From positions 1 through 44,099 of the IMG/VR virus record IMGVR_UViG_3300028590_000006: 44,099 nucleotides of DNA; one strand, written 5' to 3'. Positions within the stretch are counted from its first letter, which is position 1, and the number at the start of each line of letters is the position of its first letter. A program made the translations under genes and the position numbers. Positions 18,814 to 29,912 of this stretch are shown in pieces. The notes beneath the pieces were generated by a model. It had not been told where the DNA came from. It did not search any database and saw nothing but the letters and a program-made list of their open reading frames with translations. The DNA is from a virus.

Positions 18814-21234
18814 TTACTCCTTGGTGTTAAAGCCGTAAGTCGGCTGGTAATCATTCATATAGCGAGTACGGATGGTCTTACGATGCCTTTCAACGTGGGC
18901 CTTGAAGCCATCCGGCATATTACCCTCGTCGAGCATGGACTTGCCCCACGTAGTCTCAGATGGCACCGGGACAGGGACTTCCCAACCAAAATACCATTCG
19001 ATGAATACACTGGCTTCTTCCATGCAGGCATGCAGGACAATAGCAGCAGTGAGGGCGACATCCTCACAAGCATCCACATAAAGGGCGTCATGCACCTGAT
19101 TGACAAGCAACGCCTTGAAGTGGAATATCTTGATGCGATAGAACTCACGGACAGCCAGCCACATAGCAGCCTTCGCCCACTCGCCACCAGTACCCTGTAC
19201 GGGGTAGTTCTTTACCTCAGTGGGGCTAAACGATGTCGTCTTGCCGCCTCTCGATGGAGGCCGCTGAGCTAACCACTTAGGTGCTGGTGATTGCGTCCAC
19301 GCATACAACTTGTTATCAGGAGTGCGGTAGTAAGCCTTCTTGAGATTGCAAGTCATGCCCGGAATTTCCGGGTGCTGCACGAACAATCCAGTAGCAACCG
19401 CTGTGCGCTCAAGAGTAGCCGTCATGTCCGCATAGAATGGTTCTATCTCAGGATAACGGGTATTCTCTGCTTCAATGAGCGCATCGACTTCTTCCCGAGG
19501 CATTCCGGTAGTATCCGAAATCTTCTCGGCCCCCGCACCATAGGCACGCTGGAACGAGAATATCTTTGCCTTGGTCCGCTTGTACTCCCATTCCTCAATA
19601 GCGTCAATGCGAACACCATCAAGGACGTAACCCTTACAGCGCTGGACAGCTTCCTCGTAGGTGATGTTCTCTTTCTGGCTAACGCGGACGCAGTGCATGT
19701 CCAACCCGGCCCGAAGGTCAAGGATAAGCTGCTTACACTTTGTAAGGATAGCCTGAACGTACACTTCCAAAGACGAGAAGTCCGACTGGATAACCTTGCC
19801 ATTGGGGAAGCGGCTGACGAACAGCGACTTGACCTTAGACTTGTTACCCTTGGGTAAGTTCTGCAAGTTCGGAGACGATGACGAGAAGCGACCAGTAACC
19901 GTGCTGGTGTGATTAAGCATGTGATGGATAATACCATCCGCCTGCACCAGCGTGAGCATTCCGACTTCACCCTTCTTAGGATCAGTCGTGATGTAATAGG
20001 TCGTCAAATCCTTGCGGAGACTGGTGATCTTCGCGAGCGACTTAAGAAACGGGATGTTCCTTACGCCAAGCTCCTCGATAATCTCAGCACCGGTAGAGTA
20101 CACACCCTCCGTTGCCGTGCGCCAATGCGGCTTGGGCTGAGTATAGCCGGGGAAGGTATAAGGTACATCCTGAATAGCGCCCTTGGGCTTTTCCAGATTG
20201 GGAACCTTGACCTTCTTGGTCTTATACTCGCCCTTGTTCTTGCCGCCAGCAAACGTAGCGTATGGGAGAACATTAATGCCGTGCTCACCGGGATCAACCG
20301 GGGTAGTGCTGCCATCAGACAGTACCCAATGTACCTCGTCCTTCATAGCGTACTGCATCTGACCATCGGTGAGATGCGGTAGCCACTTCTTGTACTTGAC
20401 AGTACCGCCAAAGATCAGCGCTGATTTCTGAGGCCCGCTGTTCCAATTGAAGTCGAACGGCAAGTCTTCGGGCAGGAAGGCGGATACCTCCACGGCAAGC
20501 CCGGCAATCTCTTTCTCAAGATCAAGAGCTAGCTCGATACCGGTCTGCTTATCCACGGCCATGCCGTTGTGTTCCATCTCAATGGTACACAGCAACGACC
20601 CCATATTCATAAGGATCGACTTGACTTGGCCACAGGCCTTAGCCCGCTCATACTGCCCGAGCCAGACAAGCTCGGTATTACCGATGTCGCCTTCTTCCCA
20701 GACAAGCCCAGCCCACCGGCCACACAGGTAACCTCGCAGCAGATCAGGGTCAATCTCGGTGGTGTCAATCCCGGCTTCCCACAGCGCCTTGACCTCATCG
20801 ATCTTAACGTTGCCACCATAGCGGGGCGCAAGCTCGTCAAGGCTCAGCATGTGGTCGGCCTGCGTCATACCGTTCAGCAGGTACTCAGCAAGCTGAATAT
20901 CCCAGACAAGCCCGCCCTCGGCGACCCATTCCATCCAAGCCTGATAGTTCGCCTTAGAGATTACCGGGTTCGGATCGTTGAGCGCATGCAGGATATCGAA
21001 CTTGATGTTCTGACCTACGAGTATCTTCGTGCCAGCAAGCAGCTTAACGAAGTAGTCTGCTGGTCGAGGCCCACGGCCCCAATATTCCCCCACGGCTTCG
21101 CCGCCGTTTCTGCGCCAACCCGACATGACAATGAAGTTATCGGGATCAAAGGGATTACCCTTGCGCTTATACGACTGCTTAATCGTAGTCTCTACGTCCC
21201 ACACCGTGTAAGGTATGGTGATCTTAGTAGTCAT
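18814..21234 (-). CDS. Family A DNA polymerase with 3'-5' exonuclease, T7 gp5-like (806 aa)
   Basis: The replicative polymerase. The N-terminal exonuclease has WDVETT (D13, E15), VGQNIKFDILHAL (D80) and EEGDIGNTELVW. The polymerase domain has motif A QSDFSSLEVYVQAIL, motif B KIFSFQRAYGAGAEKIS (Arg-Tyr-Gly of the O-helix, with the catalytic Lys before it) and motif C VNQVHDALYVD (His-Asp). Length (806) exceeds T7 gp5 (704); the extra residues lie mostly between exonuclease and fingers, in the LPHLTDGQMQYAMKDEVHW to PYTFPGYTQPKPHW part, which could be a thioredoxin- or factor-binding insertion. I start at ATG 21234, in ATGA overlap with the HD gene. Confidence 0.97.
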   Translation of the reverse strand: MTTKITIPYTVWDVETTIKQSYKRKGNPFDPDNFIVMSGWRRNGGEAVGEYWGRGPRPADYFVKLLAGTKILVGQNIKFDILHALNDPNPVISKANYQAWMEWVAEGGLVWDIQLAEYLLNGMTQADHMLSLDELAPRYGGNVKIDEVKALWEAGIDTTEIDPDLLRGYLCGRWAGLVWEEGDIGNTELVWLGQYERAKACGQVKSILMNMGSLLCTIEMEHNGMAVDKQTGIELALDLEKEIAGLAVEVSAFLPEDLPFDFNWNSGPQKSALIFGGTVKYKKWLPHLTDGQMQYAMKDEVHWVLSDGSTTPVDPGEHGINVLPYATFAGGKNKGEYKTKKVKVPNLEKPKGAIQDVPYTFPGYTQPKPHWRTATEGVYSTGAEIIEELGVRNIPFLKSLAKITSLRKDLTTYYITTDPKKGEVGMLTLVQADGIIHHMLNHTSTVTGRFSSSSPNLQNLPKGNKSKVKSLFVSRFPNGKVIQSDFSSLEVYVQAILTKCKQLILDLRAGLDMHCVRVSQKENITYEEAVQRCKGYVLDGVRIDAIEEWEYKRTKAKIFSFQRAYGAGAEKISDTTGMPREEVDALIEAENTRYPEIEPFYADMTATLERTAVATGLFVQHPEIPGMTCNLKKAYYRTPDNKLYAWTQSPAPKWLAQRPPSRGGKTTSFSPTEVKNYPVQGTGGEWAKAAMWLAVREFYRIKIFHFKALLVNQVHDALYVDACEDVALTAAIVLHACMEEASVFIEWYFGWEVPVPVPSETTWGKSMLDEGNMPDGFKAHVERHRKTIRTRYMNDYQPTYGFNTKE

Positions 21235-21674
21235 GGCTGCTCGCCCCATCTTGTTAGGTACTCGACGGCAAAGACGTACTTCTTCCGCCGAACTTCACTG
21301 GCCGGGCTAAGCTCGCGCCGCCACTCAAGCATGTTGTCTTCGATATCAGCGAGCTTAACTCGAATAGCCCGATCATTAGCCCGCACTCGATCGAGATAGT
21401 CGATGTATTGTTCGCCCGGTCGCTTAGTTAGCGCATCAACGGCGTATGCTATCTCCTCTCCGAAGACAAAGCAGACTAGCCCCAATGTTACATCGGTATC
21501 CTCAACAACATCGTGGAGTACGGCGATGATGCGATCAGTATTGTTCTGCATCTTACCCATCACCCGAAGAGGATGGTAGATATAAGCCGCTCCAATCTTG
21601 TCAGTTTGTCCTTCATGGGCTTGCATGGCCATGAAGATGGCATTGCGAACTTCCCAATCGTGATGGCGGCTCAT
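21231..21674 (-). CDS. MESH1/SpoT-type HD hydrolase, putative (p)ppGpp hydrolase (147 aa)
   Basis: This single-domain HD protein has the pattern of small alarmone hydrolases: AMQAHEGQ, YIYHPLRV (H34), AVLHDVVEDT (H54-D55, E58-D59), VDALTKRPGEQYIDYLDRV and VKLADIEDN (D110, N114). In RelA/SpoT and MESH1 these residues bind Mn2+ and remove the 3'-pyrophosphate of (p)ppGpp. No synthetase domain follows. All expected metal ligands are present, so it should be active. It sits directly upstream of the DNA polymerase gene with an ATGA overlap, so it is made together with the replisome. A role in cancelling the stringent response, or hydrolysis of another 3'-pyrophosphorylated nucleotide, is inferred. 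Confidence 0.82.
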   Translation of the reverse strand: MSRHHDWEVRNAIFMAMQAHEGQTDKIGAAYIYHPLRVMGKMQNNTDRIIAVLHDVVEDTDVTLGLVCFVFGEEIAYAVDALTKRPGEQYIDYLDRVRANDRAIRVKLADIEDNMLEWRRELSPASEVRRKKYVFAVEYLTRWGEQP

Positions 21675-21868
21675 CGGCTACTACCAATAAGCACGCCGAA
21701 TACCACACCGACTACGAGGATGCCGCGAACCCACGCCCATACATCAGGAATAGTCTGCCACTCCCAAGTTACGAAGCTTACCGCAAGGTAGCAAAACGCG
21801 AGGATAATCGCGCATGCTCCATAGAAGCAGGCTGCTATCCCTATTACATCAAGGATTGGATTTCTCAT
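21671..21868 (-). CDS. Small membrane protein of unknown function (65 aa)
   Basis: The protein has two hydrophobic segments: about residues 5-33 (DVIGIAACFYGACAIILAFC...) and about 44-62 (WAWVRGILVVGVVFGVLIG), with aromatic residues between, so a two-pass inner-membrane protein. ATG 21868 lies seven bases after AAGG and overlaps the upstream stop as ATGA; the end overlaps the HD gene as ATGA. I recognise no family. Its place in the replication block argues against holin function; superinfection exclusion or membrane anchoring is possible but unsupported. Confidence 0.6.
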   Translation of the reverse strand: MRNPILDVIGIAACFYGACAIILAFCYLAVSFVTWEWQTIPDVWAWVRGILVVGVVFGVLIGSSR

Positions 21869-22047
21869 CGCATTACCTTCCAGTGTGCGGACTTAGGGAG
21901 AAACTTGATATGGTCCTTGGGCACAGTGTCCGACACAATAAACTGTACCGGAAACCGACGCGGGCCGATGTCAACAAGCATGGTTAGCCCGAAGAGATCG
22001 GCCAGATATTTTCGTGACCGGGGATTACCCGGCCCGTTCCTTTGCAT
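21865..22047 (-). CDS. Small basic protein of unknown function (60 aa)
   Basis: A 60-residue basic ORF (MQRNGPGNPRSRKYLADLFG...KSAHWKVMR). I prefer ATG 22047 (AGGA eight bases upstream) over ATG 22056, which sits directly on that AGGA. It overlaps the preceding zinc-finger gene by 23 bases and the following membrane gene by four. The middle part (TMLVDIGPRRFPVQFIVSD) looks like two beta strands. No family is recognised. It is one of three very short overlapping genes between helicase and the HD hydrolase. Confidence 0.5.
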   Translation of the reverse strand: MQRNGPGNPRSRKYLADLFGLTMLVDIGPRRFPVQFIVSDTVPKDHIKFLPKSAHWKVMR

Positions 22048-22192
22048 AGTAAGCATCCTGACAAAAGGGATCGCAGAATTGCCCGACAGCATCGTCGTCT
22101 AATACGGCCTCGTCTATGTCTATAGGATCGCCGCAGTAGTCGCATACCTCGTTGGGGTATTCGTCATCCTTGCACGATAGTTGGTGTGACAT
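22025..22192 (-). CDS. Small zinc-ribbon protein (55 aa)
   Basis: This 55-residue ORF starts at ATG 22192 behind GAGG, inside the last 29 bases of the helicase gene. Cysteines at residues 17 and 20 (CDYCGDP) and a second pair about 20 residues later (FCDPFCQDAYY) make a treble-clef-like zinc finger, with an acidic linker (DIDEAVLDDDA) between. Such mini zinc fingers in phages are often DNA- or RNA-polymerase-binding modulators, but nothing here fixes the partner. The longer frame upstream has no ribosome-binding site and lies inside the helicase gene. Confidence 0.58.
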   Translation of the reverse strand: MSHQLSCKDDEYPNEVCDYCGDPIDIDEAVLDDDAVGQFCDPFCQDAYYAKERAG

Positions 22193-24485: not shown

Positions 24486-24630
24486 CGTCGCCGCTCATAG
24501 CTGCCGCCATGTCGAAACCCATGGCCTCATTGGCCATCATGGTATCGATAGGCGTGGTGCCATATTCGTAGCCGTGCTGATCGAAAACGTCCTGCGTATA
24601 CTCGCTTTCGATATCGAAGGGGTCATCCAT
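24469..24630 (-). CDS. Small acidic protein with Gly-rich, Cys-ending tail (53 aa)
   Basis: MDDPFDIESEYTQDVFDQ begins a very acidic 53-residue protein that ends in SGDGGGGC. It starts at ATG 24630, overlapping the stop of the nucleotidyltransferase by eight bases; only a weak GAG lies upstream, so coupling is likely. Small acidic early phage proteins often mimic DNA or bind host enzymes, which is speculation here. A terminal glycine run with a single cysteine is unusual. The longer frame upstream is a shadow of the nucleotidyltransferase. Confidence 0.5.
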   Translation of the reverse strand: MDDPFDIESEYTQDVFDQHGYEYGTTPIDTMMANEAMGFDMAAAMSGDGGGGC

Positions 24631-25249
24631 TGAACTCGTACTCGAATGGGACAACAAGGGACAACAGCCCCGGATGTCGCGTGTTAAAACGAAAGAACCT
24701 GCGGATGGACTGCTCAACATGTCGATCATGCGCCATAGTGGCACGATGATAGAACTGGTCAACAGCCTGTCCCGGCCCCAGATGACAGCGCTTGCCATCA
24801 TATGCAGCTTGCAGGATATTAAAGTCGAAGCTACCGATTAGTGCTTCAAGCCCATCAGCATGGGCCTTGCGACCGATGATGTTGACGGCGTAACCCATGA
24901 ACTCCCCCTCGGCAACGCCGAACAGATCGCCCGCTTCACCGAAGGCGTCGTCGTACTCGGTATAGCGCTTGCCCGGAGGGTTAGCATATTCACCCGGTTC
25001 AAGCATAGTCAAGTGCCCGAATTTAGGCGTGCCATACAGGCTGGCCGACAGTTGCGCAGCGAAGCCTGCCAGCGAAGGCGGGTCAAACAGCTTGGCCGTC
25101 ATGTCTTCCCGGCTTTCGACCGGAATGAAGATATCGATATCCTTAGGCTCAACAGCAAGGAAACAATCACGGATGCAGCCGCCAGCGACGACCGCACCCG
25201 GAATATTGATTGCCTCAAGCATGTCAGCCCAGAGCTTAGGCCCGTTCAT
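24623..25249 (-). CDS. Pol-beta-type nucleotidyltransferase (208 aa)
   Basis: The N-terminus carries the nucleotidyltransferase signature VVAGGCIRD (G23-G24) followed by EPKDIDIF (D37, D39), the GG...DxD arrangement of the CCA-adding/poly(A) polymerase and MNT-like superfamily. A third acidic residue may be the D of FDFNILQAAYDG. The C-terminal part lacks the CCA-enzyme helical body but is longer than MNT antitoxins. phiKMV-like phages are known to carry a nucleotidyltransferase gene of unknown role. Substrates could be tRNA ends, proteins or antibiotics; none can be chosen from sequence. I start at ATG 25249, coupled to the membrane-anchored ORF upstream. Confidence 0.72.
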   Translation of the reverse strand: MNGPKLWADMLEAINIPGAVVAGGCIRDCFLAVEPKDIDIFIPVESREDMTAKLFDPPSLAGFAAQLSASLYGTPKFGHLTMLEPGEYANPPGKRYTEYDDAFGEAGDLFGVAEGEFMGYAVNIIGRKAHADGLEALIGSFDFNILQAAYDGKRCHLGPGQAVDQFYHRATMAHDRHVEQSIRRFFRFNTRHPGLLSLVVPFEYEFNG

Positions 25250-25568
25250 AGCGCTGTTGAAGACGCTCGGTCTCCATCTGCTCGCCGATGGTGATGGCCT
25301 TTGCGGCCTCACCGGACATGCGGACACCGATGTTCGCCATCTTGTCCGTGCCCAGATCGACGATCATTTCGAGGGCGCGCTTGTAATGCTCGGCCTGACA
25401 GCGGGTAGAAACCGCATAGCGGCCCATGTTCCCAAGCTGCTCATTAAGTTGGGTTTCCCGCTTCTGGCTGTACTCCAGCCGCTCGGCGATGGTATTGCGC
25501 TGATCCCGCATGACGATGGCATACACCAGCGCAATAAGCGCGACCACACCCACTGCGAACAGGATCAC
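25236..25568 (-). CDS. Membrane-anchored coiled-coil protein, unknown (110 aa, GTG start)
   Basis: An N-terminal hydrophobic segment (residues 2-19, ILFAVGVVALIALVYAIV) is followed by a charged helical region (RNTIAERLEYSQKRETQLNEQL), typical of a type II-anchored coiled-coil protein. It resembles Rz i-spanins in shape but lies in the early region and lacks an embedded lipoprotein, so I do not call it a spanin. GTG 25568 overlaps the upstream stop as GTGA. Function unknown. Confidence 0.6.
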   Translation of the reverse strand: MILFAVGVVALIALVYAIVMRDQRNTIAERLEYSQKRETQLNEQLGNMGRYAVSTRCQAEHYKRALEMIVDLGTDKMANIGVRMSGEAAKAITIGEQMETERLQQRYERA

Positions 25569-29270: not shown

Positions 29271-29912
29271 TCAGTTAGCCGCGACGGGATCGGTAATGAC
29301 CGGCTGGTTCCCTCTCATCATCACATTATCCGCATGGATGTCCCAGCGCACACAGTTACGTCCGGTAGCAGGCTCCGCATCGGCTCTGGTGTTGTGCGCA
29401 GACATAGCCTCTTGCAAGGTGCGCAAGTAGATCGAGCTACCCACCACCGTGCGATCAGGCTGACGACTATGCTCGCCCCCCGTTAGATGCCGAGTGTACG
29501 CGCCATGGCCCGCGTCCATAGTCTTGGGCGCAACGGTCAGTAACTCAAGCTCGCCCATCCAACCGCCTTTAAACTCAAGGATACCGTAGTACCTCGGAGC
29601 GAGGTCATCATAATCCTTGGTAAGCATAGCGGTACGCGCAGCCATCAAGCCACCCGGATCGCGCTGCGCTACCTTAATTACCCGCTTCATGCGGCGGACG
29701 TCTTGACGGTAGGCTGGGACAGCATCCCACATACGCTCGGGACTGTACTGGTATTGGTAGGGATTGATCGCAGTCCGCTCATCCACTTCGATTACGAAGA
29801 CGTGGGCGTAGAACCCATTGCCTATGCGCATAGCGCCAAGCTGGTTCAGACGACTAAAGGCTTCGTCCATGTCACGGCACGCGCCCAACTGAGGAAGGAT
29901 CATCGCAACCAT
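29271..29912 (-). CDS. T7 gp0.7-like protein kinase (213 aa)
   Basis: Kinase signatures are recognisable in order: a glycine-rich loop RIGNGFYAHVF (30-39), RVIKV with the probable ATP-binding Lys at K80, the hinge-like region ILEFKGGWMGELELL, a catalytic loop WDIHADNVMMR (D191, N196), and a DFG-equivalent VITDPV (D208). The closing 'DIHxDN...VITDP' pattern is what I know from T7 gp0.7 and its relatives, Ser/Thr kinases that phosphorylate host RNA polymerase and other proteins early in infection. The gp0.7 C-terminal host-shutoff domain is absent: the protein ends five residues after VITDP. It is the second early gene. ATG 29912 lies eight bases after GGAG. Confidence 0.75.
   Translation of the reverse strand: MVAMILPQLGACRDMDEAFSRLNQLGAMRIGNGFYAHVFVIEVDERTAINPYQYQYSPERMWDAVPAYRQDVRRMKRVIKVAQRDPGGLMAARTAMLTKDYDDLAPRYYGILEFKGGWMGELELLTVAPKTMDAGHGAYTRHLTGGEHSRQPDRTVVGSSIYLRTLQEAMSAHNTRADAEPATGRNCVRWDIHADNVMMRGNQPVITDPVAAN

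What the first reader, a model, noticed from the sequence alone, without database searches (positions are those of the whole stretch)
21231..21674. Phage-encoded MESH1-like hydrolase coupled to the DNA polymerase gene
All metal-binding residues of (p)ppGpp 3'-pyrophosphohydrolases are present in a single-domain protein whose stop overlaps the DNA polymerase start. A phage enzyme that clears (p)ppGpp could keep host nucleotide synthesis and replication open during infection or counter alarmone-based defences; a distinct substrate is possible.
Basis: partly seen in the sequence, partly recalled or inferred. Interest (0 to 1): 0.65.

Follow-up and report, generated by a model that had tools for sequence, protein, structure and literature searches.

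The report
Phage Aph1-type alarmone hydrolase beside polymerase
A T7-like phage related to Sphingomonas phage Scott carries a small metal-dependent enzyme of the known Aph1 type, which most likely breaks down (p)ppApp, the adenosine form of bacterial alarmones; it sits next to the DNA polymerase gene only because that spot is a slot for optional genes.

Summary
The ORF is real: 21231-21674 (-), 147 aa, one HD domain, all metal and catalytic residues present, ATGA stop/start overlap with the DNA polymerase gene. The interpretation needs correcting: it is not MESH1-like but an Aph1-type enzyme, the family defined by (p)ppApp hydrolysis. Best PDB sequence match is the Bacteroides caccae (p)ppApp hydrolase 7smg (5e-26; MESH1 3e-5). 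Its AlphaFold model (pLDDT 94) matches 7smg at TM 0.86-0.88, MESH1 at 0.75. An Aph1 profile gives 123 bits, a RelA/SpoT/MESH1 profile 62. The guanine-stacking arginine, essential in SpoT and RelSeq, is Asp25, as in Aph1; the T83-K107 linker has 23 residues, as in Aph1 and phage PVP-SE1's hydrolase. Polymerase 'coupling' means little: 9 of 38 adjacent gene pairs here overlap by 4 bp, the hydrolase is missing from all 12 relatives checked, and the slot holds other genes in them (for example an HNH endonuclease). Phage alarmone hydrolases are common and two are reported to relieve toxic-synthetase poisoning. I read this as an acquired orphan antitoxin-like enzyme in a lytic Scottvirus-like phage, probably clearing (p)ppApp. 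Substrate and role are untested.

The parts
21231..21674 (-). Aph1-type small alarmone hydrolase, 147 aa
21600..21602 (-). Asp25 codon, at the position of the guanine-stacking Arg of SpoT/Rel/MESH1; Asp in the four Aph1-type references
   Evidence: role of Arg: PMC9974481, PMC13299517
21573..21575 (-). His34, metal ligand
   Evidence: alignment
21510..21515 (-). His54-Asp55, HD metal ligands
   Evidence: alignment
21498..21503 (-). Glu58-Asp59, catalytic ED pair
   Evidence: alignment
21345..21347 (-). Asp110, fourth metal ligand
   Evidence: alignment
18814..21234 (-). DNA polymerase family A, start at the second ATG (longer frame from 21249); 79% identical to Sphingomonas phage Scott
21671..21868 (-). 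65-aa hydrophobic small protein, no family match, no match in the relatives' loci; ATGA overlaps with both neighbours; apparently inserted together with the hydrolase
21865..22092 (-). conserved small protein; marks the upstream edge of the variable slot
   Evidence: present in Scott, L089, L093, L094

Best explanation
A phage-encoded, orphan Aph1-type small alarmone hydrolase, acquired by horizontal transfer into an accessory slot just upstream of DNA polymerase in a lytic Scottvirus-like (Autographiviridae) phage. It most likely uses an HD-bound metal ion and the E58-D59 pair to cut the 3'-pyrophosphate from (p)ppApp, giving back ADP/ATP. Expressed with the replication genes, it would protect the infected cell's adenylate pool, and so phage production, when a toxic small alarmone synthetase (a host toxin-antitoxin module or a rival prophage's toxin) acts in the host. 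Shown here: family membership by sequence and fold, intact active site, Aph1-type base-site residue and linker, accessory status. Inferred: substrate, expression with replication genes, protective role.
For: 7smg (p)ppApp hydrolase is the best PDB sequence match, 94 bits, against 27/24 for MESH1 and 47 for RelSeq. 41-46% identity to B. caccae Aph1, to Aph1-type proteins of Mannheimia, Pasteurella and Streptococcus phages, to Tunturi_4 and to PVP-SE1. Profile test 122.9 vs 61.6 bits, with clean leave-one-out controls. Foldseek ranks 1-4 are 7smg, TM 0.86-0.88 by query length for the best chains, rmsd 1.4-1.9 A; MESH1 0.75, 3.0 A. RSH/MESH1/SSU5 proteins form a 99/97 clade that leaves the window out. 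D25 instead of Arg, linker 23 aa. Ala at R45 in SpoT abolishes hydrolysis (PMC9974481); R44Q does so in RelSeq (PMC13299517). Aph1 immunity enzymes hydrolyse pppApp and cross-protect (PMC12226406). PVP-SE1 and SSU5 phage hydrolases relieve FaRel toxicity (Jimmy 2020, as reported in PMC7644958). Gene absent from 12 relatives' records, slot variable (positive control).
Against: The AU test does not formally reject placing the window with RSH/MESH1 (p=0.12). Position 27 is Ile where the four Aph1-type references have Ala, so the DKAG motif is not complete. The paper defining the (p)ppApp signature (Ahmad 2023) was not held, so that signature itself could not be tested. No toxin partner was found in the window, though PF04607 also finds nothing in phages with the Aph1/MuF arrangement. 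Host and its toxSAS content are unknown.
Confidence: 0.6

Rival explanations
1. MESH1/SpoT-like: it mainly clears host (p)ppGpp and so keeps the stringent response off during replication.
For: Same superfamily and active site; [quoted passage not shown]
Against: Guanine-stacking Arg replaced by Asp, and that Arg is essential for (p)ppGpp hydrolysis in SpoT and RelSeq (PMC9974481, PMC13299517); profile and fold favour Aph1.
Confidence: 0.15
2. It removes the pyrophosphate that CapRel/FaRel2-type toxSAS defence enzymes put on the tRNA CCA end, restoring translation in infected cells.
For: Phage SSU5 hydrolase removes this tRNA modification (PMC11559606); CapRel is a phage-triggered defence (PMC9712102, listed; described in PMC11782079). 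A 3'-terminal adenosine pyrophosphate resembles (p)ppApp chemically (inference).
Against: SSU5 belongs to the Arg-type RSH/MESH clade, not to this one; no data found for an Aph1-type enzyme on tRNA.
Confidence: 0.12
3. Metabolic role only: it trims low-level host-made (p)ppApp or similar 3'-phosphorylated nucleotides to free purine synthesis for replication, with no defence involved.
For: It sits in the replication gene block; another podovirus, ct52p938, has an HD homologue between helicase and primase; (p)ppApp is reported in growing E. coli, B. subtilis and the alphaproteobacterium M. extorquens (PMC7644958).
Against: Accessory and patchy presence, absent from all close relatives with the same replication genes.
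Confidence: 0.1
4. DNA polymerase accessory protein: the hydrolase acts directly with the adjacent polymerase.
For: Adjacent and overlapping genes.
Against: Absent in all relatives whose polymerases are 53-80% identical; the slot holds an HNH gene or nothing in others; 4-bp overlaps are common in this genome.
Confidence: 0.02

Closest known systems
Aph1, adenosine 3'-pyrophosphohydrolase ((p)ppApp hydrolase) family, PDB 7smg of Bacteroides caccae
   Same: Size, fold (TM 0.86-0.88), active site, Asp at the base-site position, 23-residue linker, about 41% identity
   Different: Characterised Aph1 proteins sit beside MuF-toxin and immunity genes in temperate phages; this one is an orphan in a lytic T7-like phage; Ile27 instead of Ala
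Salmonella phage PVP-SE1 SAH (gp220)
   Same: Orphan hydrolase of a large phage, Asp-Lys motif and linker shared, about 40% identity; reported to relieve FaRel toxicity (Jimmy 2020, cited in PMC7644958)
   Different: Vequintavirinae myovirus-type phage, different gene neighbourhood (after thymidylate kinase)
PHROG 990, metal-dependent phosphohydrolase
   Same: Best phage family match, E=1e-43 over residues 10-142
   Different: Broad family by name; no substrate stated
Human MESH1 / Drosophila CG11900
   Same: HD hydrolase superfamily, metal and catalytic residues
   Different: Arg in place of Asp25, 28-residue linker, 31% identity, TM 0.75
Salmonella phage SSU5 SAH (PaSpo)
   Same: Phage-encoded small alarmone hydrolase
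   Different: Arg-Lys motif, RSH/MESH-type clade, longer linker (32) and C-terminal extension

Membership tests
Aph1 (p)ppApp hydrolases | Sequence and fold closer to Aph1 than to RSH/MESH hydrolases | tested here: met
   123 vs 62 bits; Foldseek ranks 1-4 are 7smg
Aph1 (p)ppApp hydrolases | Intact HD metal site and ED catalytic pair | tested here: met
   H34, H54, D55, D110, E58, D59
Aph1 (p)ppApp hydrolases | Aph1-type substrate-site sequence (Asp instead of Arg, DKAG, short linker) | tested here: inconclusive
   Asp25 and 23-residue linker met; Ala27 is Ile; published signature could not be read
Aph1 (p)ppApp hydrolases | Hydrolysis of (p)ppApp in preference to (p)ppGpp | not testable with these tools
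   needs an enzyme assay
MESH1 / RSH-type (p)ppGpp hydrolases | Arg that stacks on guanine in the HD1 motif | tested here: not met
   Asp25; role of Arg from PMC9974481 and PMC13299517
MESH1 / RSH-type (p)ppGpp hydrolases | Groups with MESH1 and Rel in a tree | tested here: inconclusive
   outside the 99/97 clade, but AU p=0.12
HD dNTPases / 5'-nucleotidases | Best fold match among those enzymes | tested here: not met
   the 50 best PDB matches are alarmone hydrolases, Rel/SpoT/RelA or lmo0812
Toxin-immunity pair (MuF-Apk2 / toxSAS) | Adjacent toxin gene | tested here: inconclusive
   no MuF or RelA_SpoT match in the window, and neighbours are replication genes; but the RelA_SpoT model also finds nothing in the Mannheimia phage with the Aph1/MuF arrangement

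The most novel reading that the evidence does not exclude
A lytic T7-like phage has taken up an Aph1-type immunity enzyme, of the kind found in temperate phages' toxin modules, and uses it without any toxin as a counter-defence gene that undoes (p)ppApp or tRNA pyrophosphorylation made by host toxSAS systems.
Probability: 0.3. Interest if true: 0.55.

Novelty: new member of a known kind. Interest (0 to 1): 0.3.

Why it matters
Phage alarmone hydrolases are usually annotated as (p)ppGpp enzymes or just 'metal-dependent phosphohydrolase'. Separating the Asp-type (Aph1-like) from the Arg-type (MESH/Rel-like) gives a testable substrate prediction for many phage genes, and points to toxic (p)ppApp synthetases, rather than the stringent response, as what lytic phages such as this one may be dealing with.

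Tried and rejected
MESH1 or (p)ppGpp enzyme as first choice: rejected on Asp25, profile and fold. Conserved functional link to polymerase: rejected, absent in 12 relatives and the slot is variable. Partner synthetase in the window: none found with PF04607, but that model also finds nothing in the Mannheimia phage whose Aph1-type gene lies next to a MuF protein, so the negative is weak. Defence annotation by PADLOC: no match. Pfam HD_4 and HD matches are below the curated cut-offs, so Pfam alone would not have named it. The nearest bacterial loci (L102, L103) gave no informative neighbours among ORFs of 80 aa or more. The key papers Ahmad 2023, Jimmy 2020 and Kurata 2021 are not held, so their content is cited only through other papers.

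Full report
What is there. The ORF at 21231-21674 on the minus strand is 147 aa long with an ATG start. It lies in the replication block of a phage whose whole IMG/VR record is this window. The genome holds primase, a DnaB-like helicase, family A DNA polymerase, exonucleases, ligase and a T7-type RNA polymerase. The polymerase is 79% identical to that of Sphingomonas phage Scott (Autographiviridae, Scottvirus), so this is a Scottvirus-like phage, lytic by kinship, probably of a sphingomonad or related alphaproteobacterium (host is inference).

Family. PHROGs names it metal-dependent phosphohydrolase (phrog_990, 1e-43). Pfam HD_4 and HD are hit below their cut-offs, and NCBIfam matches only the start of RelA/SpoT models. 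Among solved structures the best sequence match is the Bacteroides caccae (p)ppApp hydrolase Aph1, 7smg, with 94 bits; the best Rel proteins reach 41-47 bits and MESH1 24-27. An AlphaFold2 model from 28 sequences has mean pLDDT 94. Foldseek ranks the four 7smg chains first (TM 0.85-0.88 by query length, rmsd 1.4-1.9 A), ahead of MESH1 (0.75, 3.0 A); the P. aeruginosa SAH is also close (0.82-0.84, 2.3-2.8 A). Profiles built from four Aph1-type proteins and from seven RSH/MESH-type proteins score the window at 122.9 and 61.6 bits, and each reference scores higher with its own group in leave-one-out controls. Of the four Aph1-type references, 7smg is named a (p)ppApp hydrolase by its depositors; the Mannheimia and Pasteurella phage proteins are of the type studied in PMC12226406 (identity of the exact sequences not checked); the Streptococcus dysgalactiae phage protein is included by gene position and similarity.

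Active site and substrate. The metal ligands H34, H54, D55, D110, the catalytic E58-D59, and K107 and N114 are all present. The decisive difference from MESH1 and SpoT is at residue 25: Asp where MESH1, Rel and SpoT have the Arg that stacks on guanine. Loss of that Arg abolishes (p)ppGpp hydrolysis in SpoT (PMC9974481) and in RelSeq (R44Q, PMC13299517). The four Aph1-type references and the PVP-SE1 hydrolase have Asp there. The linker between T83 and K107 is 23 residues in the window protein, in the Aph1-type references and in PVP-SE1, and 28-37 in MESH1, Rel and SSU5. A tree of 92 proteins gives a supported clade of RSH/MESH/SSU5 proteins (99/97) that excludes the window, although an AU test does not formally reject moving the window into it (p=0.12). 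Ile27 departs from the Ala of the references. I therefore predict (p)ppApp as preferred substrate at about 0.65, with some (p)ppGpp or pyrophosphorylated-tRNA activity possible.

Genomic setting. The start of polymerase is best placed at 21234, because relatives' polymerases begin at the matching residue; the stop and start then overlap as ATGA. Nine of 38 neighbouring gene pairs in this genome overlap by exactly 4 bp, so the overlap is ordinary. The hydrolase and the 65-aa protein before it are missing from the relatives' polymerase loci, and the hydrolase from 12 whole records of relatives (the same search does find it in three known carriers). In relatives the slot holds an HNH endonuclease (L089), a family of unknown function (Scott), other ORFs, or nothing (L093). 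So the gene is accessory. Homologues are widespread in phages: 444 records at E up to 1e-3 and 197 at 1e-8. In the Mannheimia phage fetched here the homologue follows a MuF-domain head protein and one small gene, the arrangement described for Apk2, its inhibitor and Aph1 (PMC12226406, PMC11699363). Another podovirus, ct52p938, carries a homologue inside its replication block, with the Asp but not the Lys of the motif.

How it probably works. Aph1 proteins hydrolyse pppApp to ATP and cross-protect against Apk2 toxins (PMC12226406). Phage PVP-SE1 and SSU5 hydrolases relieve FaRel toxicity (Jimmy 2020, as reported in PMC7644958), and SSU5's removes tRNA pyrophosphate (PMC11559606). The same kind of gene was noted in Pseudomonas phage Adele, whose authors could not predict its substrate (PMC12846349). 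The most likely role here is rescue of adenylate pools from a toxic (p)ppApp synthetase in the host. No synthetase or MuF gene was found in the window, but the RelA_SpoT model also finds nothing in the phages with the Aph1/MuF arrangement, so that negative is weak.

Verdict. The MESH1-like reading should be replaced by Aph1-type. It is a new member of a known kind, of modest interest; the substrate and the counter-defence role are open to simple tests.

Noticed in passing
window 24623-25327 (-): Nucleotidyltransferase with a poly(A)-polymerase head-like region (phrog_1614), also found in Percy, L087, L089 and L093; function in these phages unknown.
   Followed up: partly
window 21671-21868 (-): 65-aa hydrophobic ORF with ATGA overlaps on both sides, no family match, absent from relatives' loci; apparently came in with the hydrolase.
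   Followed up: partly
L089 2934-3338: HNH endonuclease occupying the slot just upstream of DNA polymerase in a close relative, with the polymerase long frame overlapping it.
   Followed up: yes
window 29271-29912 (-): Early-region ORF with a weak match to a phage protein kinase / host transcription inhibitor family (phrog_15752, 3e-4).
   Followed up: no
viral loci L043, L051-L054, L059-L062, L065, L070-L076: A second, Arg-type group of phage alarmone hydrolases that groups with SSU5 and MESH/Rel, apart from the Asp-type group; the split could guide substrate annotation.
   Followed up: partly
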